64,000 nucleotides of DNA from Pandoraea aquatica (GTDB taxonomy: Bacteria > Pseudomonadota > Gammaproteobacteria > Burkholderiales > Burkholderiaceae): assembly GCF_902459565.1 (NCBI RefSeq), contig NZ_CABPSN010000003.1, positions 372,001 to 436,000 on the forward strand. Direction: 5' to 3'. Shown one piece after another: positions 17,524 through 30,529 of this stretch; the first letter of the stretch is position 1; every line of letters starts with the position of its first letter. The notes under the pieces were generated by a model. It was not told the DNA's origin. It searched no databases and saw only the letters and a list, made by a program, of their open reading frames with translations. A program made the position numbers and the translations under genes.

Positions 17524-17599
17524 GCGGGAGTAGCTCAGTTGGTAGAGCGCAACCTTGCCAAGGTTGAGGTCGCGAGTTCGAGACTCGTCTCCCGCTCCA
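17524..17599 (+). tRNA. tRNA-Gly (anticodon GCC), copy 1
   Basis: 76-nt cloverleaf with acceptor GCGGGAG paired to CTCCCGC, discriminator T, encoded CCA (17597-17599), anticodon loop TTGCCAA and T-loop GTTCGAGAC. It is identical over its full length to the second copy 48 nt downstream. Confidence 0.98.
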
Positions 17600-17647: not shown

Positions 17648-17723
17648 GCGGGAGTAGCTCAGTTGGTAGAGCGCAACCTTGCCAAGGTTGAGGTCGCGAG
17701 TTCGAGACTCGTCTCCCGCTCCA
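17648..17723 (+). tRNA. tRNA-Gly (anticodon GCC), copy 2
   Basis: Exact duplicate of the first tRNA-Gly, with encoded CCA at 17721-17723. The spacer between the copies differs from the DNA around the pair, so the repeat unit is essentially the tRNA gene itself plus a few bases (ATGCGGGAG in both). Confidence 0.98.
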
Positions 17724-17967: not shown

Positions 17968-18753
17968 TCACAACACCATCGCACGCATGATCCTCCCGGT
18001 CGCCTCATCGGCCGGGTAGAACGCTTCGAGCGCCATCTCGGCGAGCGTCACATCGACGGGCGTGCCGAATACCGTGGTCGTGCTGAAGAACGACAGCAGT
18101 CCCTCGTTCGTGCGCAACTGCATCGGCACGAAGATGTTCGCCGTCGGCGGTACTGCCGGTGCCGGCCCGTGCTCCGTCACCGGATACGCCTTCAATTCCT
18201 CGTACAACTCGCCCAGCGTGGCATCGCCGCTCGCGTGAATTTGCTGACGCAGGCGATGCAGCAGATGTGCGCGCCATTCCGGCAGATTGGCGATGCGCGG
18301 CGCGAGACCGTCGGGGTGCAGCGACAGGCGCAGCACATTCACGGCACCGCTCAGCAACGACGGGTCGACGCCGGCGAGCAGTGGCATCACCGCGCGGTTT
18401 GCCGCGAGCAGCGTCCAATGCCGGTCGAGGGCCAGTGCTGGATACGGCTCGTGTCCATCGAGCACACGTTGGACGGCCTCGCGAGCGACGGTCATGTCGG
18501 GACCGTCGAACGCGCGTGCCTCGAAGCGGGGCGCGAAGCCCGCCGCGACGAGCAGCGCGTTGCGCTCGCGCAGTGGAATGTCGAGTGCTTGCGCGAGATG
18601 CAGCAGCATGTCACGGCTGGGTTGCGCGCGGCCGGTCTCCACAAAGCTCAAATGGCGGGTGGAAATCTCGGCTTCCAGCGCGAGATCCAACTGGCTCATG
18701 CGTCGACGCTGACGCCAGTCGCGCAACAGGGTTCCGATAGCAGGTGTCGTCAT
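17968..18753 (-). CDS. XRE-family transcriptional regulator with MmyB-like ligand domain
   Basis: DNA-binding regulator of 261 residues from the ATG at 18753. It has an N-terminal XRE helix-turn-helix (about 8-62, with QLDLALEAEISTRHLSFVE) and a C-terminal MmyB/MLTR-type domain (about 90-260) thought to bind a fatty-acid-like or other small ligand. This domain pair is common in proteobacterial autorepressors. The frame continues upstream of 18753, but across the regulatory gap. A perfect 17-bp palindrome at 18790-18806, 37 bp before the start, is the likely operator and would also serve the divergent membrane protein gene. Confidence 0.88.
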   Translation of the reverse strand: MTTPAIGTLLRDWRQRRRMSQLDLALEAEISTRHLSFVETGRAQPSRDMLLHLAQALDIPLRERNALLVAAGFAPRFEARAFDGPDMTVAREAVQRVLDGHEPYPALALDRHWTLLAANRAVMPLLAGVDPSLLSGAVNVLRLSLHPDGLAPRIANLPEWRAHLLHRLRQQIHASGDATLGELYEELKAYPVTEHGPAPAVPPTANIFVPMQLRTNEGLLSFFSTTTVFGTPVDVTLAEMALEAFYPADEATGRIMRAMVL

Positions 18754-18789
18754 GACGCGGAGTATGGTGCAGTTGGCGCGTGAGCGGCC

Positions 18790-18806
18790 ATTACCTCCGA
18801 GGTAAT
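18790..18806. promoter_or_regulatory. Perfect 17-bp palindrome, probable operator of the XRE regulator
   Basis: ATTACCT-CCG-AGGTAAT, with both 7-bp arms perfect, in the 171-bp gap between the XRE regulator (start 18753) and the divergent membrane gene (start 18925). Its position suits autoregulation and control of the neighbour. No second exact copy was noticed in the window. Confidence 0.65.
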
Positions 18807-18924
18807 CGACGGTGCGTCGCGCGTTCGCGAAGATTATAGCCAGCGAGACACGATGTCTCGTCATCCTGAGCAACGCTGCCACGGGCGGGTTGTCGGGATC
18901 GGACTCACGCTAATGGAGGTCACC

Positions 18925-19383
18925 ATGATGTCATCCCGTCAGTCTTCGCTTGAGGCTTCGCGCCACAGCTCGCATCATTCGCTTCATTCTTCGTCCCGCG
19001 CTTCGATGCTTGCCCGCGTGATGCTCGCCGACGCGCTGGTGAGCGGTGCCGTCGGCCTGTTGCAGGTACTCGCCGCAGCGCCACTGGCAGGGCTGCTGGA
19101 CTTGCCCGCCATCGGACTGCGTATCACGGGCCTTGTCCTGCTTGTCTACGGGGCTGCGCTCGTCTGGCTGGTGCGACGCACGGTATTACCTGCTGGCGCA
19201 GCGTGGGCGGTCATCGCTATCAACGTGATCTGGGCACTCGATTGCGCCTTGTTGCTGGCATCGGACTGGATTGCGCCCAATGGACTGGGCGTGGCCTTTA
19301 TCGGTGTCCAGATCGTCACCGTGCTGTCGTTCGCCGAACTGACGTTCATCGGACTCCGCCGCCGTCGGCAGGTATCCGCCTGA
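18925..19383 (+). CDS. Small four-helix membrane protein of unknown function
   Basis: 152-residue product with a Ser/His-rich cytosolic start (about 1-30, SSRQSS..HSSHHSLHSSS) and four hydrophobic helices (about 33-55, 58-80, 88-110, 116-140), ending in RRRR. I start it at the ATG at 18925 because GGAGG lies about 6 nt upstream. An adjacent ATG at 18928 is equivalent. I do not recognise a named family. It diverges from the XRE/MmyB regulator, whose common partners are oxidoreductases or small membrane proteins, so regulation by that neighbour is the main inference. Confidence 0.75.
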   Translation: MMSSRQSSLEASRHSSHHSLHSSSRASMLARVMLADALVSGAVGLLQVLAAAPLAGLLDLPAIGLRITGLVLLVYGAALVWLVRRTVLPAGAAWAVIAINVIWALDCALLLASDWIAPNGLGVAFIGVQIVTVLSFAELTFIGLRRRRQVSA

Positions 19384-19494
19384 TGGGGGGGATGCCCCCG
19401 CGACTTCACGAATTTAAGGTTATTCGATAAGGGCGGGGGCAGTCGGTATTACTATCGTCAGAATTGATCCAGCCATCGGAAATCGACGACCGAC

Positions 19495-20148
19495 ATGACC
19501 GACAAGAAACTGTTTTATTACCCGAGCAACGCCAGCATGGCCCCTCACATGGTCCTGGAGGAAATTGGCCGGCCTTTTGAATTGGTGCTTGTGGACCGCA
19601 ATCACAATGAACACAAGTCTGCGGAATATCTGCGTCTGAATCCCAACGGATTGATTCCGGTGTTGGCCGACGGCGACCTGGTGTTGTATGAGACGGCCGC
19701 CATCTGCCTGCATCTGGCGGACACATCGCCTGAAAGTGCGTTGGCACCCAAGCTGGGAACGCCGGCGCGCGCGGAGTTTTACAAGTGGCTCATGTGGCTG
19801 ACGAACACGCTTCAATCGGCATTGATTGTTTATTTCTACCCGGAGCGGTGGGTGGACGTCGGCAACGTGGCGGGTGTGGATCAGGTACGGGCGCATGCCG
19901 AATCGAAGATTGGCACTTTGCTGGAACAGCTGGAGCAACAACTTCAGTCGAGCGGCGGCCCTTGGTTGCTGGGTGACCAATACTCGATCCTTGATCCGTA
20001 CGCATTCATGCTCTGTCGGTGGACACGAGGCTTTGCGAAGCCGGCACGCGAGCGCGCGTTGCTCGGCCAGTATTTGCAGCGGATGCTCGCACGACCCGCG
20101 ATTCAACGTGTGCTGAAGACGGAAGGGCTTGCTGCGCCCTTCGTGTGA
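19495..20148 (+). CDS. Glutathione S-transferase family protein
   Basis: 217-residue cytosolic GST. The N-terminal thioredoxin-like domain (about 1-82) shows KLFYYPSNASMAPHMVLEE, the cis-Pro stretch NPNGLIPVL and the glutathione-site turn LYETAAICLHLAD. The all-helical C-terminal domain follows (about 90-210). The Ser in NASMAPH fits a beta/zeta-type catalytic residue. The substrate is unknown. A terminator follows at 20204, so the gene is monocistronic. Confidence 0.9.
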   Translation: MTDKKLFYYPSNASMAPHMVLEEIGRPFELVLVDRNHNEHKSAEYLRLNPNGLIPVLADGDLVLYETAAICLHLADTSPESALAPKLGTPARAEFYKWLMWLTNTLQSALIVYFYPERWVDVGNVAGVDQVRAHAESKIGTLLEQLEQQLQSSGGPWLLGDQYSILDPYAFMLCRWTRGFAKPARERALLGQYLQRMLARPAIQRVLKTEGLAAPFV

Positions 20149-20448
20149 GCCATCGGATTGCATAGCTGCCTGTGCCCATTCCAGCCTCGATTTCCAGAAA
20201 CTCAAAAGCCCCGACTTGTCGGGGCTTTTTTTTCGCACGCCTCCTTGGCTACCCCGCCTCCTTTATCGCAAATCTGGCGCTCGTTAGCGGTATGCGGAGG
20301 ACAAGGGGTGAACCAGGCTCATTCGGGAAAATGCACGGCGCTGCCTTCGTCAGCGTCACCTAATATTGTTTCGGCAGGCAGCCTACGTCCATAACTAAAC
20401 GATCAACAGGAGAATGTAAATCTTGTAAATTAATAAGGAGTACTTATT
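20149..20448. other. Gap between GST gene and PKS
   Basis: Contains the GST terminator (20204-20233), then about 215 bp leading to the PKS. The last 100 bp are visibly AT-rich compared with the rest of the window and end in the ribosome site AAGGAG (20435-20440), 8 nt before a TTG start. I see no other gene here and no convincing -35/-10 pair. Confidence 0.6.
20204..20233 (+). terminator. Terminator after the GST gene
   Basis: Stem AAAAGCCCCGAC (20204-20215) with GTCGGGGCTTTT (20218-20229), a two-base loop and a run of eight T. It isolates the downstream PKS from GST transcription. Confidence 0.9.
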
Positions 20449-23400
20449 TTGAGTCATGGAATTCAGTCAAATCATTCGAGGCGAGCGAGTGATCAAATCG
20501 CCGTCGTCGGAATCGGATGCCGGTATCCCGGCGCGCAAGGGGTCAAAGAGTTCTGGGAAAACATTCTTGCCAAGCGACAGCAGTTCAGGCCGATTCCGGC
20601 GTGTCGGCTTTCTAAGCAAGGCTACTTTTCTTCAGACCGAAGCGCGGAGGATCAAACCTACGCCTGGCAGGCGGCCGTAATTGACGGATATGTATTCGAT
20701 TGGCAGGCGCGCCGCATTCCTAAAAGTACATTCGAGTCCACTGACATTGCGCACTGGTTGGCGCTCGATACCGCGATCAGCATGCTTGAGGATGCTGGCT
20801 ATGTGGACGGCGAGCGATTGCCTCGGGAATCTACCCGGGTGATCGTGGGTAATACCCTGACAGGCGAGACGACGCGTGCCAACGACCTGCGCTTGCGTTG
20901 GCCGTACGTGTTGTCTTGCGTGCGAAAGGCGTTGGCGTCTGCCGGTTGGAACGCCGACACGACCCTCTCGTTCGAAAATCGTCTCAAAGAGATTTACAAG
21001 CGTTCATTTCCGGAAGCCAACGAAGACTCCCTGGCCGGAGGGCTTTCCAACACCATTGCCGGGCGTATAGCAAACTATCTAGACCTCAATGGGGGCTGCT
21101 ATACGATAGACGGTGCCTGCTCGTCCTCCCTATTGGCAATTCACGCAGCGGCGACCTGTCTGAGCGCAGGACAGTGCGATTTTGTGATCGCAGGGGGTGT
21201 CGACATCAGTCTTGACCCATTCGAGCTGGTCGGATTCGCAAAAGCAGGTGCGCTCACACCGACACAAATGCGTGTCTATGACGATCGCGGTAACGGGTTT
21301 ATTCCAGGAGAAGGGAGCGGCTTCGTCGGACTCAAACGCCTGAGCGACGCGATTGAGAGTCATGACAAGATCTATGCGGTGCTCGACGGCTGGGGGATGT
21401 CGTCCGATGGTCGAGGGGGAATCACTGCGCCGAGCGCACGGGGGCAGCAGCTGTCGCAGGCGCACGCCTATCGCTTTGCCCGTGTTTCACCGGAAGCGCT
21501 TGATTTCGTAGAGGGACACGGTACCGGCACTGCCGTAGGTGATAGGGCTGAATTGAATGCCCTCGGCATGACCCTTTCTTCGTCGGACGACGCGCACGTT
21601 TGTGGCATCACGTCACTCAAGTCCATCGTGGGTCATACCAAGGCAGCTGCAGGGATTGGTGCATTCATAAAGAGCGTGATCGCAGTCAATCAACGTGTCT
21701 TGCCCCCGACGGCAGGATGCGATGAGCCGCATCAGGCGTTTTCCAGCAGTGCGCGTGCTTTGTTCCCAGCGATACGCGGCCGTGCATTTCGCGAAGCCGA
21801 TGTGCTGCGGGCCGGTGTCTCGGCGATGGGATTTGGCGGCGTCAACGTGCACGTTACGCTTAGATCCTATGTTTCCCCGCCGGACTCGCATCTCCGTAGC
21901 GACCTGGACAATCGCAGTGCGATGGCGAGTTGGCAAGATAGCGAAGTCTTCCCTTTGACGGCATCGTCTTCCACGGAACTTAGACAGTGCGTGGCGAACC
22001 TTCGGCGAGATGTCGAAGGCATCAGTCTGGCCGAACTTTCCGATCTGGCCGCGCACTGCGCGCGAAATGTCGATCTATCAGCCCCATGGCGTGCTGCAAT
22101 CGTCTCGGAGTCGCCGGAGCAATTGTTCGAAAGACTGGCGCGGCTCGATACGGCACTCATCGATGCCTCCTCTGCGAGTCCTGTCTCGGATCGCGAGCAC
22201 GGGTTCACATTCGGACGCGTGAGCGAATCGCCTCGGGTCGGCCTGTTGTTCCCAGGGCAGGGTGCCCAACGACTGGGCATGGCGAGCGCGCTGATGGAGC
22301 GCTATCGTTGGGCGCGCCGAAGCGCGGAGCAAGCCGAGCAATGGGCGGCCAGGTATGGCGCGCCAAGCATTCTGAAGACAATGCACCCGGAGCTGGACCG
22401 GTTTCCCCATCAGGCGGAACGCGAGTCGCTCATGAATACGCTGCAACGCACCGAATGGGCGCAACCGTCTATTGTGCTGGCGTCTCTGATCTGGCTGCAA
22501 ATGCTGACACGATTGGGAATTCGGTCCAACTGCGTCGCGGGGCACAGCCTCGGAGAGTTGGTCGCGTTCCATGCGGCAGGGGCGTACGGCATGCAGACTG
22601 CCGTCGAGTTGGCCGCTGTGCGAGGGCGTGAGATGGCGGCAGGTACCGGAGCCGCAGGTGCGATGCTCAGCCTCGCATGTACCCGCCTTCAGGCGCAACG
22701 CCTCATCGGCGAGGCAAAAACGTCCGGTTATTCCGTATTGGCCAATATCAACAGTGAGCGCCAGATGGTTGTGTCGGGGGAGATGGCTGCCATTGACGTC
22801 ATTGAAAAGGCTGCCGTCTCGGTCGGTACAGCCGCAGTTCGATTGCCTGTCAGTCACGCATTTCACTCGAAGCTTGTCGAACGCGCCGCCGATGCCGTAG
22901 GCAAGTGCGCACCGATCGCTCGCGACTGTGACGCGCTGACCTGCGTGTTGATTTCGAGTATCGACGGTCTGGAACTATCGCCGCGAGTTGACCTGAAAGA
23001 GCATTTCGCTCGCCAGATCGTCAGTCCCGTCGACTTTGTGCAAACGCTGAACTCACTGGCAAGGCATGTCGATGTCGTGCTTGAAGTCGGACCGGGAAAC
23101 GTTCTCACGAATTTGTCGCGTAACGTTCCCGGCACACGGGACTTGCCATGCTTTCCGGTGGAGAGCAAATCGGAAACTTGGCGCGACATCAACTGGGCGC
23201 TTGCCAACCTGCACGTCCTGGGTTCTCCCATCGTTTGGCGCGAGTTGCACGCAGAGCGAGTTATCCGACCGTTTATTCCTGCGCGCAGTCGCGTGTTCAT
23301 CGCGAATCCTTGTGAGCGCTTGGCCGAGGCGACGTTGCCGTCATGCCTGCCCGGTGATCAGATCGTTTCGCCGCCCGAGATTGCAACTTCCGATGCAGCT

Positions 23401-24873
23401 TGCGAAGCCGAAAAAGCGTCAGTTAAAGATGTCGCATTCGATGCCGAGTCGCTGACGTCTGCCGCTGACGCTTGCGCATGGCCGGTCCTTCGGCGCTTGT
23501 CTGCACAGATTACGGGTTTTGCCGAGGCGGCTATTGACCGCGAGTCTCGCCCGCTCGACGACCTGAATATGGATTCGATCAAGACGGCTATCCAACTCAC
23601 GCTGACGCAACGGTCCGGCGATGCCGTCATGTTCCGCGGCGAAGGCGCGGGCGGGACGCGTGGGGTGAGCGTCCTCACTTTGCCCTGCGAGTTGACGCGG
23701 CATCCTAAGAAAATGTTCGCATTTGTCGTGAATCGTGGTGGCATGCAGAGCGAGCCTGCCGGTCGGGGGCCTGGAGTCGCCTTGTCCTGTGCAACATCTG
23801 CGCAAAGTTCCGGGCCGGGGGATTCAGGATCTCAACAGCCCACCTTCCTGACGAAAACTCGGTTTCGTGCGGCGTTCAAGGATACGTGGCCACCTGTGCT
23901 CACATTAAGTTCGGGAACGATCGCTGAATGGATGGGACGGCTTAGAGAGGAGCATGCCGTTGATTTCGGGCGGCAGATTCTGGACAAGTTCGATACCGGT
24001 GTGTTCGGCATGGCGACCAATCATTCCAGCGTCGAGTCGATTGCACGACCGGATACCACCGATCTCGTAGAGGGCCGATTTTGGTTTACCCGCCGATATG
24101 GCCGCGGCGACTCGACACTTGATCAAAATCTCGAGTGGCACCGGATCGACGCGGCGGGGAACAGCACGTTGATCGCCCGGGCAAAGATGACGACGTCATC
24201 GACGACGATAGTGAGCCATGGCGTGATAGAGCCGGTGAACCTGCCCGCGTTCTATGGTGATTGGCTTGCGCCGCGTCTTGCCGGTTTGCGCGATTGGCTG
24301 GAATCACATCCGTCCATCGACACGCCATATCCCTCGTTTGAATGGCGTACGGCTGCCTCGTATGTGGCATGCGCGGCCCCCGCGTTGGAGTCGATACTCT
24401 GCCGGAAGATCTTTGAGACGTCACTCACCAGCGGAAATTTGGTCGGGAACGTGTACTTCGCTCACTACTACCGTTGGCAGGATCAGATCGCCGAGCAGTA
24501 TTTCCGGTCAGTCTCGCTCGAAATGCCGCATCCTTCTGCCGCCAGAGCGGGGTTCCATTGCTGTTCGGCTTCCGTGAACCATTTGCGTGAGGCCATGCCG
24601 TTCGACAGGATCGAAGTTGTCATGGCGCTTCAGGCGTTGCACGACGACGGGCTCGAACTGCGCTTCGAGCACTATCGTCTTGGCGACGACGACGAGCGAA
24701 TCAAGTTGGCGGTTGGTTCTGCTCGCTACGTTTGGACATGTCGTACGCCTGCCGGAATCGCGATCTGCTCACAGCCATTGCCGCGTGTGTTGTTTGACGC
24801 GCTTAAGGCAGCATGCAGCTCGTTTCGAAACGATTCCAGTTTGCCGAAGACGGATGCTAACCCCCTCGTTTGA
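20449..24873 (+). CDS. Enediyne-type iterative polyketide synthase, KS-AT-ACP-hotdog
   Basis: 1474-residue type I PKS. The KS (about 14-470) has Cys224 (DGACSSSL), His357 (GHGTGT) and His396 (GHTKAAAG), so it looks active. Blocks such as STDIAHWLALD, GNTLTGE, LRWPYV and DPFELVGFAK match the enediyne PKSE class as I remember it. The AT (about 605-900) has Ser700 (GHSLGE) and HAFH at 803-806, the malonyl-type signature. An ACP-like stretch has Ser1043 (LNMDSIK) but loses likeness soon after. The last 320 residues look like one or two hot-dog folds, with NLVGNVYF at 1330-1337 as in enediyne thioesterases. I find no KR, DH HxxxGxxxxP motif or C-terminal PPTase, which PKSE proteins of about 1900 residues carry. 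The start is TTG with AAGGAG 8 nt upstream. It stands alone: GST upstream, convergent lipocalin-like gene 20 nt downstream. Confidence 0.85.
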   Translation: MSHGIQSNHSRRASDQIAVVGIGCRYPGAQGVKEFWENILAKRQQFRPIPACRLSKQGYFSSDRSAEDQTYAWQAAVIDGYVFDWQARRIPKSTFESTDIAHWLALDTAISMLEDAGYVDGERLPRESTRVIVGNTLTGETTRANDLRLRWPYVLSCVRKALASAGWNADTTLSFENRLKEIYKRSFPEANEDSLAGGLSNTIAGRIANYLDLNGGCYTIDGACSSSLLAIHAAATCLSAGQCDFVIAGGVDISLDPFELVGFAKAGALTPTQMRVYDDRGNGFIPGEGSGFVGLKRLSDAIESHDKIYAVLDGWGMSSDGRGGITAPSARGQQLSQAHAYRFARVSPEALDFVEGHGTGTAVGDRAELNALGMTLSSSDDAHVCGITSLKSIVGHTKAAAGIGAFIKSVIAVNQRVLPPTAGCDEPHQAFSSSARALFPAIRGRAFREADVLRAGVSAMGFGGVNVHVTLRSYVSPPDSHLRSDLDNRSAMASWQDSEVFPLTASSSTELRQCVANLRRDVEGISLAELSDLAAHCARNVDLSAPWRAAIVSESPEQLFERLARLDTALIDASSASPVSDREHGFTFGRVSESPRVGLLFPGQGAQRLGMASALMERYRWARRSAEQAEQWAARYGAPSILKTMHPELDRFPHQAERESLMNTLQRTEWAQPSIVLASLIWLQMLTRLGIRSNCVAGHSLGELVAFHAAGAYGMQTAVELAAVRGREMAAGTGAAGAMLSLACTRLQAQRLIGEAKTSGYSVLANINSERQMVVSGEMAAIDVIEKAAVSVGTAAVRLPVSHAFHSKLVERAADAVGKCAPIARDCDALTCVLISSIDGLELSPRVDLKEHFARQIVSPVDFVQTLNSLARHVDVVLEVGPGNVLTNLSRNVPGTRDLPCFPVESKSETWRDINWALANLHVLGSPIVWRELHAERVIRPFIPARSRVFIANPCERLAEATLPSCLPGDQIVSPPEIATSDAACEAEKASVKDVAFDAESLTSAADACAWPVLRRLSAQITGFAEAAIDRESRPLDDLNMDSIKTAIQLTLTQRSGDAVMFRGEGAGGTRGVSVLTLPCELTRHPKKMFAFVVNRGGMQSEPAGRGPGVALSCATSAQSSGPGDSGSQQPTFLTKTRFRAAFKDTWPPVLTLSSGTIAEWMGRLREEHAVDFGRQILDKFDTGVFGMATNHSSVESIARPDTTDLVEGRFWFTRRYGRGDSTLDQNLEWHRIDAAGNSTLIARAKMTTSSTTIVSHGVIEPVNLPAFYGDWLAPRLAGLRDWLESHPSIDTPYPSFEWRTAASYVACAAPALESILCRKIFETSLTSGNLVGNVYFAHYYRWQDQIAEQYFRSVSLEMPHPSAARAGFHCCSASVNHLREAMPFDRIEVVMALQALHDDGLELRFEHYRLGDDDERIKLAVGSARYVWTCRTPAGIAICSQPLPRVLFDALKAACSSFRNDSSLPKTDANPLV

Positions 24874-24893
24874 TCGTTTGCCGATTTCTCCCG

Positions 24894-25412
24894 TCAGTCC
24901 ACACGCTGCCAGACAGAAATCGGCACATCGCCGTTCGGACGCGGCGTCACTCGGTAGCTCAGCTCGCCACCCTTGAGTTCGTAATTGCGCTTCTGCTGTT
25001 CCCCTTCCCAATTGGGGAAAGAGGCGTTTTGGATGTGGAACGTCAGCGTGCCGTCGGCCGGGTCGATGCTGATCGTGCCCGTGTGAGTACTGGAGCCCAT
25101 GACCGCTGCCTTGTACTCGGCGGGCGTCCCCGCACTCTTGTCGCCCGACGCGAATTTGGGCCGTTCCGCCTTGAAGATTTGCAGTGAGTAGTTTCCCTTC
25201 GCGTCGATGACCAGCAGGCCCTTGGGTGCCGCGCCATAATCTCGATCCCGCGAGCCGTCCGGATGCTGGACGTCTGCGGCGACCAATGTCCATGTGCCCG
25301 TGAGCGACGGCGCAACCGTTGGCGTCGCTGCGTGTGAGCCCGTCGTCAATATGGTGCACACCGAGAAGACCGCGCCGAGCATGCCGCGTTTAAGCATCGT
25401 CTGACCGTTCAT
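24894..25412 (-). CDS. Secreted lipocalin-like domain protein
   Basis: 172-residue product from the ATG at 25412, chosen for a GGAGA site 9-10 nt upstream. A signal peptide (about 1-29, ending GSHAA) leads into a lipocalin-like beta-barrel domain: SLTGTWTLVAADVQHPDGS, then LLVIDAKGNYSLQIF, a layout I associate with the lipocalin_5 type. The frame extends to 25472. The gene is convergent with the PKS and divergent from a LysR gene, which may regulate it. Ligand and role are unknown. Confidence 0.75.
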   Translation of the reverse strand: MNGQTMLKRGMLGAVFSVCTILTTGSHAATPTVAPSLTGTWTLVAADVQHPDGSRDRDYGAAPKGLLVIDAKGNYSLQIFKAERPKFASGDKSAGTPAEYKAAVMGSSTHTGTISIDPADGTLTFHIQNASFPNWEGEQQKRNYELKGGELSYRVTPRPNGDVPISVWQRVD

Positions 25413-25578
25413 AAGGGGATGTCTCCGTGACCGGAAGGCGTTAAGGGGGATGGACGGGGAGGACACGCGCAAGTCGCGCGAGACATGCGGATCGACCCGG
25501 CACTGTCATCGATGATAGCCAGATGAATGATGCAGTAAATGCGATAATTCGGGATCAATGCTTCAGAGAAACTGAACA

Positions 25579-26454
25579 ATGACGATCCCGAATCTCGACA
25601 TGGATGCCCTGCGGACATTCCTTGTGGCCCAGCAACTGGGCAGTCTGAATCGTGCAGCAGAACGCATTGGACGCTCTCAGTCGGCCGTCAGCCAACAAAT
25701 GCGCAAGCTCGAAGCGCAGGTCGGTGAGCCGCTGTTTCGACGACAAGGGCGGGGCCTGGCGCTGACCGACTCGGGCGAACTGATCCTCTCCTATGCGCAC
25801 CGCATCCTCGATCTCAACGACGAAGCCGTTCGCGCGGTTCGGGGTGCGTCGGTCGAGGGCGTGGTGCGCTTCGGTCTGCCGGGCGACTTCGCTGAGACGT
25901 GGTTGCCGGCGGCGCTGGGGCAGTTCAAGAAGACGCATCCGGGGGTGCGTGTCGAAGTGGCCGTCGAGCGCAACGGCGTGTTGCTCGAACGACTGGACCG
26001 GGGGGAACTCGACCTCGTGCTGGTGATGGGCAACGAACGGCGGTCCGATGCCGAGCCGCTCGCCTTGTTGCCGATGACATGGATAGGACCTGTCGGCGTC
26101 GACCTGACGCTGACACCGGGTCTTGCGTTGGATCTCGCGCTGTACAACCCACCGTGCTTCTTCCGTCGCGCGGGCATCGAGGCGCTCGACGCCGCAGGCA
26201 TTTCGTGGCGGCTGGCTTACACGACGGCGAGTCTTCAAAGCCTTTGGTCGGGTGTGGCCGCAGGGCTCGGCATCACGTTGAGAACGGCGGCCGGTCTGCC
26301 GCCGTCGTTAAAACGGCTCGGCGCAAAAGAGGGACTGCCGCCGCTGCCGTCGGTCGCCCTCTGCCTGCATGCAGGTCATCGCGACACGCCACCCGCGTTG
26401 GCGCAGCTCAAACGCGTAGTGACGGAGTGTGCGGGCGCGAATCTCGCCGCTTAA
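25579..26454 (+). CDS. LysR-family transcriptional regulator
   Basis: 291-residue regulator with an N-terminal winged helix-turn-helix (about 5-64, DALRTFLVAQQLGSLNRAAERIGRSQSAVSQQMRKLE) and a periplasmic-binding-protein-like effector domain (about 90-290). It diverges from the lipocalin-like gene across 166 bp, the classical LysR arrangement, so that gene is its most likely target. Its effector cannot be guessed from the sequence. Confidence 0.9.
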   Translation: MTIPNLDMDALRTFLVAQQLGSLNRAAERIGRSQSAVSQQMRKLEAQVGEPLFRRQGRGLALTDSGELILSYAHRILDLNDEAVRAVRGASVEGVVRFGLPGDFAETWLPAALGQFKKTHPGVRVEVAVERNGVLLERLDRGELDLVLVMGNERRSDAEPLALLPMTWIGPVGVDLTLTPGLALDLALYNPPCFFRRAGIEALDAAGISWRLAYTTASLQSLWSGVAAGLGITLRTAAGLPPSLKRLGAKEGLPPLPSVALCLHAGHRDTPPALAQLKRVVTECAGANLAA

Positions 26455-26585
26455 TAGAAAGGGAAAGGGGGAGGGCAATGCCGCAACGCGTGTGCGCCTC
26501 ACCGCACCACAATTTCTGCGTGGTCGCTCCCATCGTCGAATCGTAGAATGCACAATTACCCCAAAAGAGCCGTCAGAGGTAAGAA

Positions 26586-27158
26586 ATGGACACAGCAATG
26601 ATCGATGGACGACTGGATTTCCTGCGAACCTGCGAGCGTTTAAAGGACGTCTTGCGAAGCGCGCATACGTCGTCAGGACGTCGCGAGAGCACGGCCGAAC
26701 ACAGCTGGCGTCTCGGGCTGATGGCGACGGTTTTCATGGATCAATTGGGCGACGTCGACCGTTTGAAAATCATGGAGCTTTGTCTCGTCCATGATCTCGG
26801 CGAAGCGCTTCATGGGGATGTTCCTGCGACGGAGCAAAATAGCGATATCGATAAGGACGCCGTCGAGCGTAACGACTTGATGGAAGTCTGCGCGTCGCTC
26901 GATGCGCCACTGCGTGAGAAGATCGTCGCGCTCTGGGACGAATACGCCGCAGCGAAAACCCCCGAAGCACGCGCCGTCAAAGCGTTGGATAAGCTTGAAA
27001 CCATGCTGCAACACACGCAGGGTGATAATCCTTCCGACTTCGATTACGCGTTCAATCTCGATTACGGACGCAAGTACACCGATGCTGTATCGCCGCTTCG
27101 CGATGTGCGTGAGCGAATCGACGATGCGACGCGGGACCGCATCACAAAGACCGAATAA
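26586..27158 (+). CDS. HD-domain phosphohydrolase (YfbR/HDDC2-like)
   Basis: 190-residue metal-dependent phosphohydrolase. The metal ligands are visible as His39 (AEHSWR), His69-Asp70 (VHDLGEALHGD) and a later Asp in KALDKLETM (about 139). This arrangement fits 5'-deoxynucleotidases acting on deoxynucleoside monophosphates. AGAGG lies just before the ATG at 26586. An ATG 12 nt on is an alternative. It is convergent with the GNAT gene. Confidence 0.88.
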   Translation: MDTAMIDGRLDFLRTCERLKDVLRSAHTSSGRRESTAEHSWRLGLMATVFMDQLGDVDRLKIMELCLVHDLGEALHGDVPATEQNSDIDKDAVERNDLMEVCASLDAPLREKIVALWDEYAAAKTPEARAVKALDKLETMLQHTQGDNPSDFDYAFNLDYGRKYTDAVSPLRDVRERIDDATRDRITKTE

Positions 27159-27221
27159 GCAGATGTACCAGCAGACGATTAAGCTGACGAATCAGCGAAT
27201 CGCCCGCCTGATTCTCAACGC

Positions 27222-27911
27222 TCAAGCCAGCGCCACCCGATTCATCACAAACGTCTGACGCGTTTCGAACCCCATGCGCTTGTAAAGCGCGATAGCGGTT
27301 TCGTTGTCATCCTTCACGTGAAGGAATGGGGTATCGCCGCGCGCTTTGATTTGTTGACGATGGATGTTCATCAGGCGTCCCGCGAGCCATTTGCCGCGGT
27401 GACGCTCGTCCACACACACCGCGCTGATTTCCACGTAACCGTCCAGACGCATGCGCTCGCCCGCCATCGCGATTAACTCGCCGTCGGCACGAATCCCGAT
27501 GTAGTGACCCATCTCGATCGTGCGCTTGCCGAACGGCCCGGGACGCGTGCGCTCCGTCAGCGCGATCATCTCCGGCACATCGCTCACGCCGAGTTGTACA
27601 ACCCCTTCTTCGTTAAGCGCGCCGACAGTACCCGCATCCACCATTTGAATCACCGAAAACACGTGATCGTGATGAATGCCGTCAATCGGCGGCAATGCTT
27701 CCAGCGACGGTAGAAACACAAAGCCACCTTGCGGGATGAGGGTAGCCAGCGCATGAAATGCCGCCTGCGTCGTATTTGCTACGCCAGCAAACGGCGCCAC
27801 GTCGGCTTCGTATCGACGTGCCAATTCAGTTCCGTGCGCGAGTGCGGATTGCTTCGTCACCAGTGCATGCCACGTTGGATTGTCGAGACGGCAATGATTC
27901 GAGTGTTCCAT
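27222..27911 (-). CDS. GNAT-family N-acetyltransferase
   Basis: 229-residue protein. The C-terminal half (about 120-225) is a GNAT domain with the acetyl-CoA motif around ISAVCVDERHRGKWLAGRL (about 165-183) and the terminal LYKRMGFE (about 210). The N-terminal 110 residues look like a diverged extra domain, as in FR47-like acetyltransferases. The acceptor substrate is unknown. It shares direction with the MAPEG gene 33 nt upstream and is probably cotranscribed with it. Confidence 0.85.
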   Translation of the reverse strand: MEHSNHCRLDNPTWHALVTKQSALAHGTELARRYEADVAPFAGVANTTQAAFHALATLIPQGGFVFLPSLEALPPIDGIHHDHVFSVIQMVDAGTVGALNEEGVVQLGVSDVPEMIALTERTRPGPFGKRTIEMGHYIGIRADGELIAMAGERMRLDGYVEISAVCVDERHRGKWLAGRLMNIHRQQIKARGDTPFLHVKDDNETAIALYKRMGFETRQTFVMNRVALA

Positions 27912-27944
27912 GATCGTTTCCCTTGCTGATGCATTGATGTCGAT

Positions 27945-28370
27945 TTAAACCGTGTGTCCGAGAATCGCCGTCGCGATTGAGACCGTCGCACCGAAACCCA
28001 CAAGAAATGCCAGTGTGCGCACGACCGGAATACCGGCGACATAAACGACGTAATGCACGATGCGTGCGATCAGATACAGCTTCGCCGCGAAAACCGTGGC
28101 GGGCGTCGAAATTCCGTTCAGTGCGGCGATCAACACCAGCGGCGCAAAGACGGCGAGGTTTTCCACCGCGTTGGCATGCGCGCGCTTGGCACGTTGCATC
28201 CACGCTGGCGTCGCGGCCCCGGACGTCTGCCCGGCGACTTCCGGCACCGGGTTGGCCATCGCGCGCATCGGTCCGCGCAGCACGATCCCAGCCAGGATGT
28301 ACGGAATCCACATGGCGGCCGTCAGCAATGCCACAAGGGTCAGGTAATACAGTTCTGGGGTGAGCTTCAT
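27945..28370 (-). CDS. MAPEG-family membrane protein
   Basis: 141-residue integral membrane protein with four hydrophobic helices (about 5-28, 55-80, 82-105, 112-138). The central stretch RAHANAVENLAVFAPLVL is the MAPEG hallmark. Eukaryotic members conjugate glutathione or reduce peroxides, while bacterial functions are mostly untested. The gene diverges from the GlxA-type regulator at 28471 across a 100-bp gap filled with inverted repeats, so regulation by that neighbour is likely. Confidence 0.9.
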   Translation of the reverse strand: MKLTPELYYLTLVALLTAAMWIPYILAGIVLRGPMRAMANPVPEVAGQTSGAATPAWMQRAKRAHANAVENLAVFAPLVLIAALNGISTPATVFAAKLYLIARIVHYVVYVAGIPVVRTLAFLVGFGATVSIATAILGHTV

Positions 28371-28437
28371 GATGTCCCGGTCTCGGAAGTCGTTGAATAT
28401 GAGGCGATTCTAGACATCCGGAGACGACAGGAATATA

Positions 28438-28470
28438 GTCGCAAATGACAATATTCGAGTCATTTACGAC
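28438..28470. promoter_or_regulatory. 33-bp inverted repeat abutting a regulator start codon
   Basis: Arms GTCGCAAATGAC (28438-28449) and GTCATTTACGAC (28459-28470) match at 11 of 12 positions around a 9-nt centre, and the second arm touches the ATG at 28471. A second repeat, GAATAT (28431-28436) with ATATTC (28451-28456), interlocks with it. The element lies where a ribosome site is expected and is a candidate autoregulatory operator. Confidence 0.6.
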
Positions 28471-29439
28471 ATGAAGATTTGCGTTTTTGCACTGGACGGC
28501 GCATTCGATACCGGCCTCACGGCGATCCTCGACACGCTGTGCACCGCCAACGAACTCGCGATGCTGCGCGGGGCCGATGTTCTGCCGTTCGACGTGAGCG
28601 TTGTCGGCACGAAGTCACGCATCCAAACGGCATTGGGGATGACGATGGCCGTCGAACCGGCGCGTGACGTCGAGCATTCGACCCAGTTGCCCGACTGGGT
28701 GGTCGTCCCCGCACTGAACGCCAAGCTGCCGGACATCCTCGTGCCCGCGCTGGCGCGACGCGACGTCCAAGACGCCAAGTCGTATCTGCGCACCTGGCGT
28801 GAGCAGGGCGTCGGCATCGCGGCGGCCTGTATCGGCACGTTCGTGGTGGCCGACAGCGGTTTGCTCGATGGCGAGGAGGCGACGACCACATGGTCGCTTG
28901 CACCGCTATTTCGTGAGCGATACCCGACGGTGAAGCTGAGCGATTCGCGAATGGTCGTGGAGTCGAACGGGCTGGTGACGGCCGGTGCAGCGATGGGGCA
29001 TCTCGACCTCGCGCTGTGGTTTGTGCGGCAGGCCAGTCCCGAGCTGGCGTCGCACGTCGCGCGGTTCCTGCTGATCGACAACCGCTCGTCGCAGGCGCAG
29101 TACATCATCCCGGACTTTCTCGCGCATGCCGATCCGCTTGTCGAACGCTTCGAGCGATGGGCGCGCGAGCACATGTCGCAGGGCTTCTCGCTGGAGAGCG
29201 CTGCGCAGGCGTTAAATGTGCATGTGCGGACGTTGCAACGTCGCACGGAGCAGGTGCTCGGCAAGTCGCCGCTGGCGTTCTTTCAGGACCTGCGCATCCA
29301 GCGTGCGAGACAACTGGTGTCGAACGGCTGCGATCTCGACACCGTCGCGACGCAGGTCGGCTATGCGGATGCCTCCACGCTGCGCAATCTGCTCAGACGC
29401 AAACTCGGTCGCACCGTGAAGGAGCTTCGCAGCGACTGA
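28471..29439 (+). CDS. GlxA-family transcriptional regulator (DJ-1/PfpI + AraC)
   Basis: 322-residue regulator. The N-terminal DJ-1/PfpI-like domain (about 1-190) holds the nucleophile-elbow Cys in AAACIGTFVVADSGLLDG (about 110). The C-terminal AraC domain has two helix-turn-helices (about 235-320: LESAAQALNVHVRTLQRR and LDTVATQVGYADASTLRNLLRR). No Shine-Dalgarno sequence is visible before the ATG, because an inverted repeat occupies that place. The divergent MAPEG gene is the likely target. Confidence 0.92.
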   Translation: MKICVFALDGAFDTGLTAILDTLCTANELAMLRGADVLPFDVSVVGTKSRIQTALGMTMAVEPARDVEHSTQLPDWVVVPALNAKLPDILVPALARRDVQDAKSYLRTWREQGVGIAAACIGTFVVADSGLLDGEEATTTWSLAPLFRERYPTVKLSDSRMVVESNGLVTAGAAMGHLDLALWFVRQASPELASHVARFLLIDNRSSQAQYIIPDFLAHADPLVERFERWAREHMSQGFSLESAAQALNVHVRTLQRRTEQVLGKSPLAFFQDLRIQRARQLVSNGCDLDTVATQVGYADASTLRNLLRRKLGRTVKELRSD

Positions 29440-29442
29440 CGC

Positions 29443-30399
29443 TCAGAACCCGATCTGTTTGAGGAATTCGTTCACCGGACCCGACCACATCTTGCCGCCG
29501 TAGGTGAGCAGCATGTGACCGTCGTGGCCCGCGATGTCTTCCGTGTGGACGAACTTCGCCGGACTGCCCGACGCCGCGAAGGCGTCGAACCATTGTTTCG
29601 GCGCGTCCGGTCCCCAGTACTGGTCGTTGTGCGCATACAGCCAGAGCCCCGGGATCTTCGTCGTCTTGCCGAATTCACCGTAGACCGTCTTCATCTGCTC
29701 GGGATCGCAGCTGTGTTGCGGCGACAACTCGGGCGACCCGCCTGCGCCGCCGGAGAAGTTGATGTAACCGACGACGCCCGGCGGATTCGTGGCCGCTGTC
29801 GAGACGGTCGTGAAGCCACCGACCGAACGGCCTTCGAGCACCACGCGATTCTTATCCGCCCACGGCTGCGCCTGCACCCACTTCAACGCTGCAAGGTTCG
29901 CTTCGGCCGTGACCTTCGCGAGCTTCTCGAAGTCGGGACGTCGCACACATTGCCCGTTCTTGAACGACGAACCGGAGTTCTCCCGATCCGGCCCGCCCGT
30001 CAGACCGTAGCCGACGCGGATCGGCGCAACGATGGCGAACCCGCGCGCCAGCCAGAAACGCACGTGACCTTTGAGAATCGGCGCATCGAGTTTGGCGCGA
30101 ACGAGTGGATCGCCGGCGCGTCCGTGTTCGAAGATCAGCACGGGGAACGGGCCGTTGCCCGCCGGTTTGTAGACTTCCGTGTGCATGGAGATGTCGCCAC
30201 CGAAAGTGCTCGCCCCGGGCACGACGATGCCGACGATTTCAGGCTTGGGGTCCGTTTGCGACGGGGCGGCGTTTGCAGGCGGTGCTGAGGTGTCATCCGT
30301 CGCCGCGAACGACGTCGGCATCGAGACGAAGAGTGCGGCCAGCGCCGTGGCGCAAAGCGAACCGGTGCGCTTGAGCGCGAATGCAGCGAAGCGTGTCAT
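29443..30399 (-). CDS. Secreted alpha/beta hydrolase (dienelactone-hydrolase-like)
   Basis: 318 residues from the ATG at 30399. The signal peptide (about 1-32, ending SFAA) is followed by an alpha/beta-hydrolase fold with the nucleophile elbow GRSVGG (about 185), a probable acid in AHNDQYWG (about 260) and the His in GHDGHML (about 295). An FEHGRAGDP loop near residue 92 suggests an oxyanion region. The substrate is unknown. It ends 3 nt after the convergent GlxA-type gene. The frame is open to 30489, but the signal peptide argues for the later start. Confidence 0.85.
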   Translation of the reverse strand: MTRFAAFALKRTGSLCATALAALFVSMPTSFAATDDTSAPPANAAPSQTDPKPEIVGIVVPGASTFGGDISMHTEVYKPAGNGPFPVLIFEHGRAGDPLVRAKLDAPILKGHVRFWLARGFAIVAPIRVGYGLTGGPDRENSGSSFKNGQCVRRPDFEKLAKVTAEANLAALKWVQAQPWADKNRVVLEGRSVGGFTTVSTAATNPPGVVGYINFSGGAGGSPELSPQHSCDPEQMKTVYGEFGKTTKIPGLWLYAHNDQYWGPDAPKQWFDAFAASGSPAKFVHTEDIAGHDGHMLLTYGGKMWSGPVNEFLKQIGF

Positions 30400-30529
30400 A
30401 TGAGAGACGACCGTGTGGGGGGGGCGGATGAGAGCCAGGTGGACGTGCAAACCGACGCTATCGTACTTCGCGGTGTGTGACAGCGACACTCATTCGAACG
30501 GCTGAGGATGTTTGCCTGTATGGGCAACG

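What the first reader, a model, noticed from the sequence alone, without database searches (positions are those of the whole stretch)
20449..24873. Stand-alone enediyne-type PKS with a shortened domain set
The KS carries the specific blocks of enediyne PKSE enzymes (STDIAHWLALD, GNTLTGE, LRWPYV, DPFELVGFAK) with an intact Cys-His-His set, and the AT looks malonyl-specific. Yet I find no KR, no DH motif and no C-terminal PPTase, and there are no enediyne warhead genes beside it. Known PKSE enzymes have KS-AT-ACP-KR-DH-PPTase (from memory). A single-gene locus of this kind in a Burkholderiaceae genome could make an unreduced or short polyketide by an unusual route.
Basis: partly seen in the sequence, partly recalled or inferred. 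Interest (0 to 1): 0.8.

Follow-up and report, generated by a model that had tools for sequence, protein, structure and literature searches.

The report
Deletion-shortened enediyne-type polyene synthase gene
The gene is not a new kind of compact polyketide synthase but an enediyne-type polyene synthase, with a releasing thioesterase fused on, that has lost its middle part; longer, intact-looking copies stand at the same place in two related bacteria.

Summary
The 1474-aa ORF (20449-24873 +) is real and its KS-AT lies in the enediyne PKS (PKSE) clade: 41% identity to C-1027 SgcE, 100/100 support in KS and KS-AT trees. The 'shortened domain set' is an in-frame deletion. Two of 31 other same-genus genomes, one of them Pandoraea commovens LMG 31010, have 2553- and 2612-aa ORFs in the same neighbourhood, reading KS-AT-ACP-ACP-KR-DH-PPTase-hotdog-hotdog. 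Against P. commovens the window lacks 3225 bp (1075 codons), from inside ACP1 to late in the PPTase. The unnamed C-terminus is a tandem hotdog pair related to enediyne thioesterases CalE7/DynE7. Warhead genes E3/E4/E5 were not found in the genome. The protein keeps loading and release parts but no complete carrier, reductase or dehydratase: most likely inactive and recently broken, since retained codons show no relaxation. The intact relatives form a rare PKSE side branch (twin ACPs, doubled thioesterase) in Proteobacteria and a cyanobacterium, with the two presumed catalytic residues shared out between the two hotdogs in four of six; that lineage is the more interesting part.

The parts
20449..24873 (+). 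internally deleted PKSE-type polyketide synthase ORF, 1474 aa, TTG start
20435..20440 (+). AAGGAG ribosome-binding-site-like sequence, 8 nt before the start codon
   Evidence: sequence
20491..21720 (+). ketosynthase domain (residues 15-424), Cys-His-His present
   Evidence: PKSE clade
22246..23112 (+). acyltransferase domain (residues 600-888), GHSLGE and HAFHS
23500..23590 (+). start of the first ACP, up to DSIKTA; rest lost
   Evidence: no PP-binding match
23589..23590 (.). deletion junction: 3225 bp present in P. commovens is absent here; shared dinucleotide TA
23591..23739 (+). C-terminal tail of the PPTase region (end approximate)
   Evidence: corresponds to P. commovens residues 2127-2176; the separate-hotdog homologue G261 PKS aligns up to 2176
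23863..24258 (+). first hotdog, related to DynE7/CalE7
24403..24870 (+). second hotdog, enediyne-type polyene thioesterase (NLVGNVY motif)
20153..24890 (.). accessory segment holding the PKS gene; two same-genus genomes have instead about 0.96-0.99 kb with one membrane-protein-like ORF

Best explanation
The gene descends from a one-protein iterative polyene synthase of the PKSE lineage: KS-AT-ACP-ACP-KR-DH-PPTase followed by two CalE7-like hotdogs. In intact relatives the PPTase would arm the twin ACPs, KS-AT would extend with malonyl units, KR and DH would make conjugated double bonds, and the hotdog pair would hydrolyse the chain off (inferred from the families). In the window strain an in-frame deletion of 3225 bp, without long repeats at its ends, fused the start of ACP1 to the tail of the PPTase (shown by comparison with P. 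commovens). The remaining protein has no complete carrier, no reduction or dehydration and no self-activation, so it most likely makes no polyketide (inferred). It is a recently crippled copy.
For: ACP, KR and DH domains of the missing block are in both by Pfam and in G196, G261 and Gloeothece (the ACP of G196 below cut-off), so the block is ancestral and the window lost it. Exact 3225-bp gap with TA at the junction. No ACP, KR, DH or PPTase match in the window protein. KS and KS-AT in the PKSE clade. Both hotdogs match CalE7/DynE7.
Against: The reading frame is intact, I saw no other lesion, and the retained parts are under constraint (dN/dS 0.15 and 0.23 against P. commovens; window branch 43 synonymous/21 nonsynonymous against 48/31 on the other branch, Fisher p 0.49). 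That fits a recent deletion but also a product still in use. One assembly only; reads and sister strains could not be checked, so a misassembly is not strictly excluded. The PPTase label rests on weak Pfam matches (E 0.023 in P. commovens, 0.037 in Gloeothece, none in G007, G196 or G261), a GCD[VI]E motif in three of five and alignment to SgcE.
Confidence: 0.87

Rival explanations
1. The shortened protein is a working KS-AT-thioesterase that borrows the fatty-acid ACP of the cell and makes a short, unreduced polyketide acid.
For: In-frame junction, KS, AT and hotdog motifs present, ribosome-site-like sequence, no relaxed constraint.
Against: No complete carrier domain; the same data fit a recent deletion, with at most about 7% of the branch unconstrained by a rough estimate; the three related lineages seen outside Pandoraea (G196, G261, Gloeothece) all keep ACP, KR and DH.
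Confidence: 0.07
2. The short gene is an assembly or sequencing artefact and the strain has the full-length gene.
For: Only one assembly of this species is held; no reads are available.
Against: The junction is inside a 792622-base contig, the gap is a clean multiple of three, and no long repeat that could collapse an assembly stands at the ends (2-nt exact overlap).
Confidence: 0.05
3. A natural compact PKSE making an unreduced or short polyketide, older than the full-length form.
For: Domain count of the window gene alone.
Against: The missing block is shared by relatives in Pandoraea, two other proteobacteria, a cyanobacterium and, apart from the second ACP, by SgcE, and the window copy is nested inside the Pandoraea copies.
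Confidence: 0.01

Closest known systems
Longer ortholog in Pandoraea commovens LMG 31010 (G030/L023/L028) and in G007
   Same: 93-94% (P. commovens) and 58-64% (G007) identity, same neighbourhood, same KS-AT and hotdog ends
   Different: They keep ACP-ACP-KR-DH-PPTase; the window gene has lost it
SgcE, PKSE of C-1027 (Streptomyces globisporus)
   Same: KS-AT clade and, by alignment, the same domain order up to the PPTase; 41% identity over 16-1056
   Different: The double-hotdog branch has two DSIK-type ACPs, the thioesterase fused (or adjacent) and doubled, and no E3/E4/E5 genes found
CalE7 / DynE7 / ACP-polyene thioesterase (2w3x, 2xfl, 2xem, 4i4j; that 4i4j is SgcE10 is recalled)
   Same: Sequence-profile match to each of the two hotdogs
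   Different: Here two hotdogs in tandem at the C-terminus of the synthase instead of a separate single-hotdog protein
Split PKS of Gloeothece verrucosa PCC 7822 plasmid Cy782201
   Same: 48% identity in KS-AT; ACP-ACP-KR-DH-PPTase-hotdog-hotdog on the next gene
   Different: Two genes, followed by three genes annotated as tryptophan halogenases
PfaA polyunsaturated fatty acid synthases (TIGR02813)
   Same: Neighbouring clade of the KS; several ACPs are usual there (recalled)
   Different: Far below the curated cut-off (389 of 1010 bits) and outside in the trees

Membership tests
Enediyne PKS (PKSE) | KS within the PKSE clade | tested here: met
   100/100 clade of 12 rows with four actinobacterial PKSE, PfaA outside
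Enediyne PKS (PKSE) | KS active-site residues and an AT with GHSxG and HAFHS (malonyl type by recall) | tested here: met
Enediyne PKS (PKSE) | complete ACP | tested here: not met
   ACP1 cut after DSIKTA; no PP-binding match. Two DSIK-type ACPs in the longer relatives
Enediyne PKS (PKSE) | KR and DH domains | tested here: not met
   present in P. commovens and G007
Enediyne PKS (PKSE) | C-terminal PPTase | tested here: not met
   only its tail remains; in P. commovens a below-cut-off ACPS match (15.2 of 25 bits) and a GCDVE motif
Enediyne biosynthesis locus | E10-type thioesterase | tested here: met
   present as a fused tandem hotdog
Enediyne biosynthesis locus | E3, E4, E5 genes | tested here: not met
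   no match at E<=0.001 in G000, G030, G007, G196, G261; found in G092 and G309 by the same three searches
Enediyne PKS (PKSE) | makes a conjugated polyene | not testable with these tools
   needs expression
PfaA polyunsaturated fatty acid synthase | TIGR02813 cut-off reached | tested here: not met
   389 bits against 1010 for the window protein; 475 for P. commovens

The most novel reading that the evidence does not exclude
The intact relatives are a separate lineage of self-contained polyene synthases: one chain carries everything from self-activation to release, with twin ACPs and a covalent pair of hotdogs that works as a pseudo-dimer. In G196 and G261 both hotdogs keep the CalE7 Asn19 and Arg37 positions; in the three Pandoraea copies and Gloeothece the first keeps only the Arg and the second only the Asn, as if the two halves had come to share one composite active site. 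It makes a polyene for a purpose other than an enediyne warhead.
Probability: 0.5. Interest if true: 0.6.

Novelty: new variant of a known kind. Interest (0 to 1): 0.4.

Why it matters
The window gene itself is a loss-of-function story and warns against reading a short domain set as a new architecture without checking relatives. The intact lineage matters more: it puts the whole enediyne-type polyene machine, thioesterase included, on one chain (split in a cyanobacterium), outside enediyne clusters. It could show what PKSE-type enzymes do when no enediyne is made, and its split pair of catalytic positions makes a composite thioesterase site directly testable.

Tried and rejected
Frameshift near the ACP: the other two frames of 23400-24000 are interrupted by several stops, and the odd stretch aligns in frame to the PPTase tail of the relatives, so no frameshift. 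Long direct repeat at the deletion ends: blastn showed a 10-nt overlap, but only TA is exact. AlphaFold2 of window residues 1018-1474 with two rows: mean pLDDT 31, not used. Warhead genes elsewhere in the genome: none found. A search for the first hotdog in 398 genomes of the phylum found only the window genome. Ten paper searches turned up background papers that I cite but, in the listings, no description of a PKSE in Pandoraea or of a PKSE with fused tandem hotdogs; four of the ten returned no paper at all. This library lacks most subscription papers, and Rudolf 2016 and Kotaka 2009 were not held.
Full report
What is there. The ORF 20449-24873 (+) encodes 1474 aa. AAGGAG lies 8 nt before its TTG start. 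A consensus scan found no sigma-70-type promoter in front of it; it found fewer such sites in the region than in shuffles. Pfam sees a ketosynthase and an acyltransferase and only a sub-threshold thioesterase hint near the end. Its GC3 is 0.64, at the low end of the ORFs that my script picked across the window (0.61-0.87). Ten neighbouring genes at 17968-30489 were scanned: an HTH regulator, a GST, a lipocalin-like protein, a LysR regulator, an HD-domain protein, a GNAT acetyltransferase, a MAPEG protein, an AraC-type regulator, a peptidase-like protein, and one without a match. None looks like a biosynthesis partner.

Is the KS of PKSE type? Yes. tblastn in the plasmid collection gave Gloeothece verrucosa PCC 7822 (48%) first, then Streptomyces globisporus C-1027 (41%) and other Streptomyces. 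The three Streptomyces stretches besides C-1027 that I fetched, like C-1027's own, carry DUF1702 and CRTAC1- or VCBS-type and UnbU/RnfD-type genes before the PKS. A KS tree of 34 rows puts the window in a 12-row clade with these four (100/100), next to PfaA. A KS-AT tree of 18 rows repeats this.

Where did the other domains go? Of 32 genomes in the genus (own included), three match a C-terminal query: the window's, G030 and G007; the full-length query agrees. G030 has the contig length of Pandoraea commovens LMG 31010, which is in the Burkholderiaceae. G030 and G007 have ORFs of 2553 and 2612 aa in the same surroundings, with matching flanks on both sides; in G007 the GST next door gave no match at the strict threshold used. 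Pfam reads KS, AT, two ACP stretches, KR and DH in both, 4HBT_2 in both (just below cut-off in G007, well below in P. commovens), and a below-cut-off ACPS (PPTase) match in P. commovens only. All twelve motif patterns that I tried, two ACP serines included, are found in both. The window protein matches P. commovens residues 5-1061 (94%) and 2124-2552 (93%) and nothing between. At the DNA level the window lacks 3225 bp, exactly 1075 codons. Identity to the left side runs through window base 23590 and identity to the right side starts at 23589, with TA shared and 7 of 10 bases alike at the end of the left side. This looks like a deletion by end joining or slippage that stayed in frame, a one-in-three chance. 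What remains in between is LNMDSIKTA of ACP1 joined to the tail of the PPTase.

The C-terminus. A profile of residues 1139-1474 with five relatives finds CalE7 (E 9.3e-23), an 'ACP-polyene thioesterase' (4i4j) and DynE7 with its second half. A profile of the first half alone finds DynE7 (1.3e-8), 4i4j (7e-7) and CalE7 (1.7e-6). Profile-profile comparison gives 99.5% for the second half against four stand-alone thioesterases and 98.5% for the first half against a mixed set of second halves and stand-alone enzymes. Pfam on single first halves finds little (4HBT_2 in 2 of 6, best E 0.033, none for the window). At the CalE7 Asn19 and Arg37 positions (numbered from the alignment), G196 and G261 have Asn and Arg in both hotdogs. 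The three Pandoraea copies and Gloeothece have Pro or Ser and Arg in the first, Asn and Ala or Leu in the second. Three of four stand-alone enzymes have Asn and Arg, and RerS4 has Asp and Gln. That these two residues are catalytic in CalE7 is recalled; I saw only the title of Kotaka 2009 in a reference list and could not read it. A composite site is therefore a hypothesis.

The lineage. G196 has one 2928-aa ORF with two GAF domains between AT and ACPs. G261 has a 2248-aa PKS and a separate 347-aa double hotdog, followed by three UnbV_ASPIC proteins. Gloeothece has the KS-AT and the rest on two genes. With the three Pandoraea copies these six separate fully from the other six PKSE (100/100 between the groups; the six against all other rows 93/98, under the 95 line; KS alone 90/96). 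Four of the other six have a single-hotdog gene right after the PKS (G092 and G309; S. clavuligerus and RerS4); in the C-1027 and NBC_00846 stretches that I fetched no gene is annotated as a thioesterase. SgcE3-, SgcE4- and SgcE5-like genes gave no match in G000, G030, G007, G196 and G261 and did in G092 and G309. The lineage is rare: with a C-terminal query 6 of 369 class genomes matched, and of these the window genome, G196 and G261 match over both hotdogs; with the first-hotdog profile 1 of 398 phylum genomes, the window's own; in 72,556 plasmids only Gloeothece covered 80% of its own double-hotdog query, 49 further records matching in part. In an order search with the tandem profile 19 of 300 matched, and none of the 18 others reaches into the first hotdog.

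Insertion site. In G013 and G020 identity to the window stops at about 20152-20155 and resumes at 24891-24892. Between lie 0.96-0.99 kb holding a membrane-protein-like open frame, 87% alike in the two. The PKS segment is thus an accessory single-gene cassette.

Decay or use? Between window and P. commovens dN/dS is 0.15 in the N part (1040 codons) and 0.23 in the C part (410 codons). Polarised by G007, the window branch has 43 synonymous and 21 nonsynonymous changes and the P. commovens branch 48 and 31; in the C part alone the counts are small, 7 and 8 against 14 and 12. A free branch would have given about 131 nonsynonymous changes; if the rest of the branch evolved like that of P. commovens, the unconstrained share is at most about 7% (95% bound). 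So the deletion is young relative to the species split, or the short protein still does something. I favour youth, because without a complete carrier domain the chemistry cannot run on this chain alone.

Literature seen. PMC8725005 (first of four parts): a common iterative PKS makes a polyene (heptaene) precursor in dynemicin biosynthesis. PMC3107222 (passages): CalE8 domains, release by the hotdog thioesterase CalE7, and the unusual H(L/M)(S/T/N)S(I/L) ACP motif of the CalE8 ACP and its homologues, which differs from the DSIK twin ACPs here. PMC8788690 (passages): the sgcE set E3, E4, E5, E, E10 described as common to enediyne PKS loci, with homologues in methanotrophs. PMC4247773 (passages and section 9): an enediyne KS clade next to PUFA KS, and PUFA and enediyne clusters in Cyanobacteria. 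In the ten searches named in Tried and rejected I saw no description of the fused tandem-thioesterase form; the library is partial.

Verdict. The claimed novel short architecture is explained by a deletion. The unusual thing is the intact parent lineage. On re-checking I corrected the hotdog residue pattern, which slightly strengthens the composite-site idea, and raised interest from 0.38 to 0.40 for that reason.

Noticed in passing
L039:6175-14961 (G196): PKSE-type synthase with two GAF sensor domains between AT and the ACPs, beside an AcrB-type efflux pump and a PAS-GGDEF-EAL protein.
   Followed up: partly
L040:4121-18599 (G261): PKSE-type synthase with a separate double-hotdog gene and three consecutive UnbV_ASPIC/FG-GAP proteins, although SgcE4 itself gave no match in that genome.
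   Followed up: partly
L044:11983-26424 (Gloeothece verrucosa PCC 7822 plasmid): Split PKSE-type synthase (KS-AT and ACP-ACP-KR-DH-PPTase-hotdogs on two genes) followed by three genes annotated as tryptophan halogenases.
   Followed up: partly
window 17524-17599 and 17648-17723: Two tRNA-Gly(gcc) genes and a tRNA-Cys close upstream; they explain the 78-nt perfect repeats seen in blastn.
   Followed up: yes
L046:5314-6300 and the matching gap in L047: At the PKS-free site two same-genus genomes carry a membrane-protein-like open frame of about 280-306 codons instead, so the spot looks like a variable site.
   Followed up: partly
G000:C4:183052-183444 (window genome): A second, weak single-hotdog match to the tandem thioesterase profile (E 4e-6), perhaps an ordinary acyl-CoA thioesterase.
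   Followed up: no
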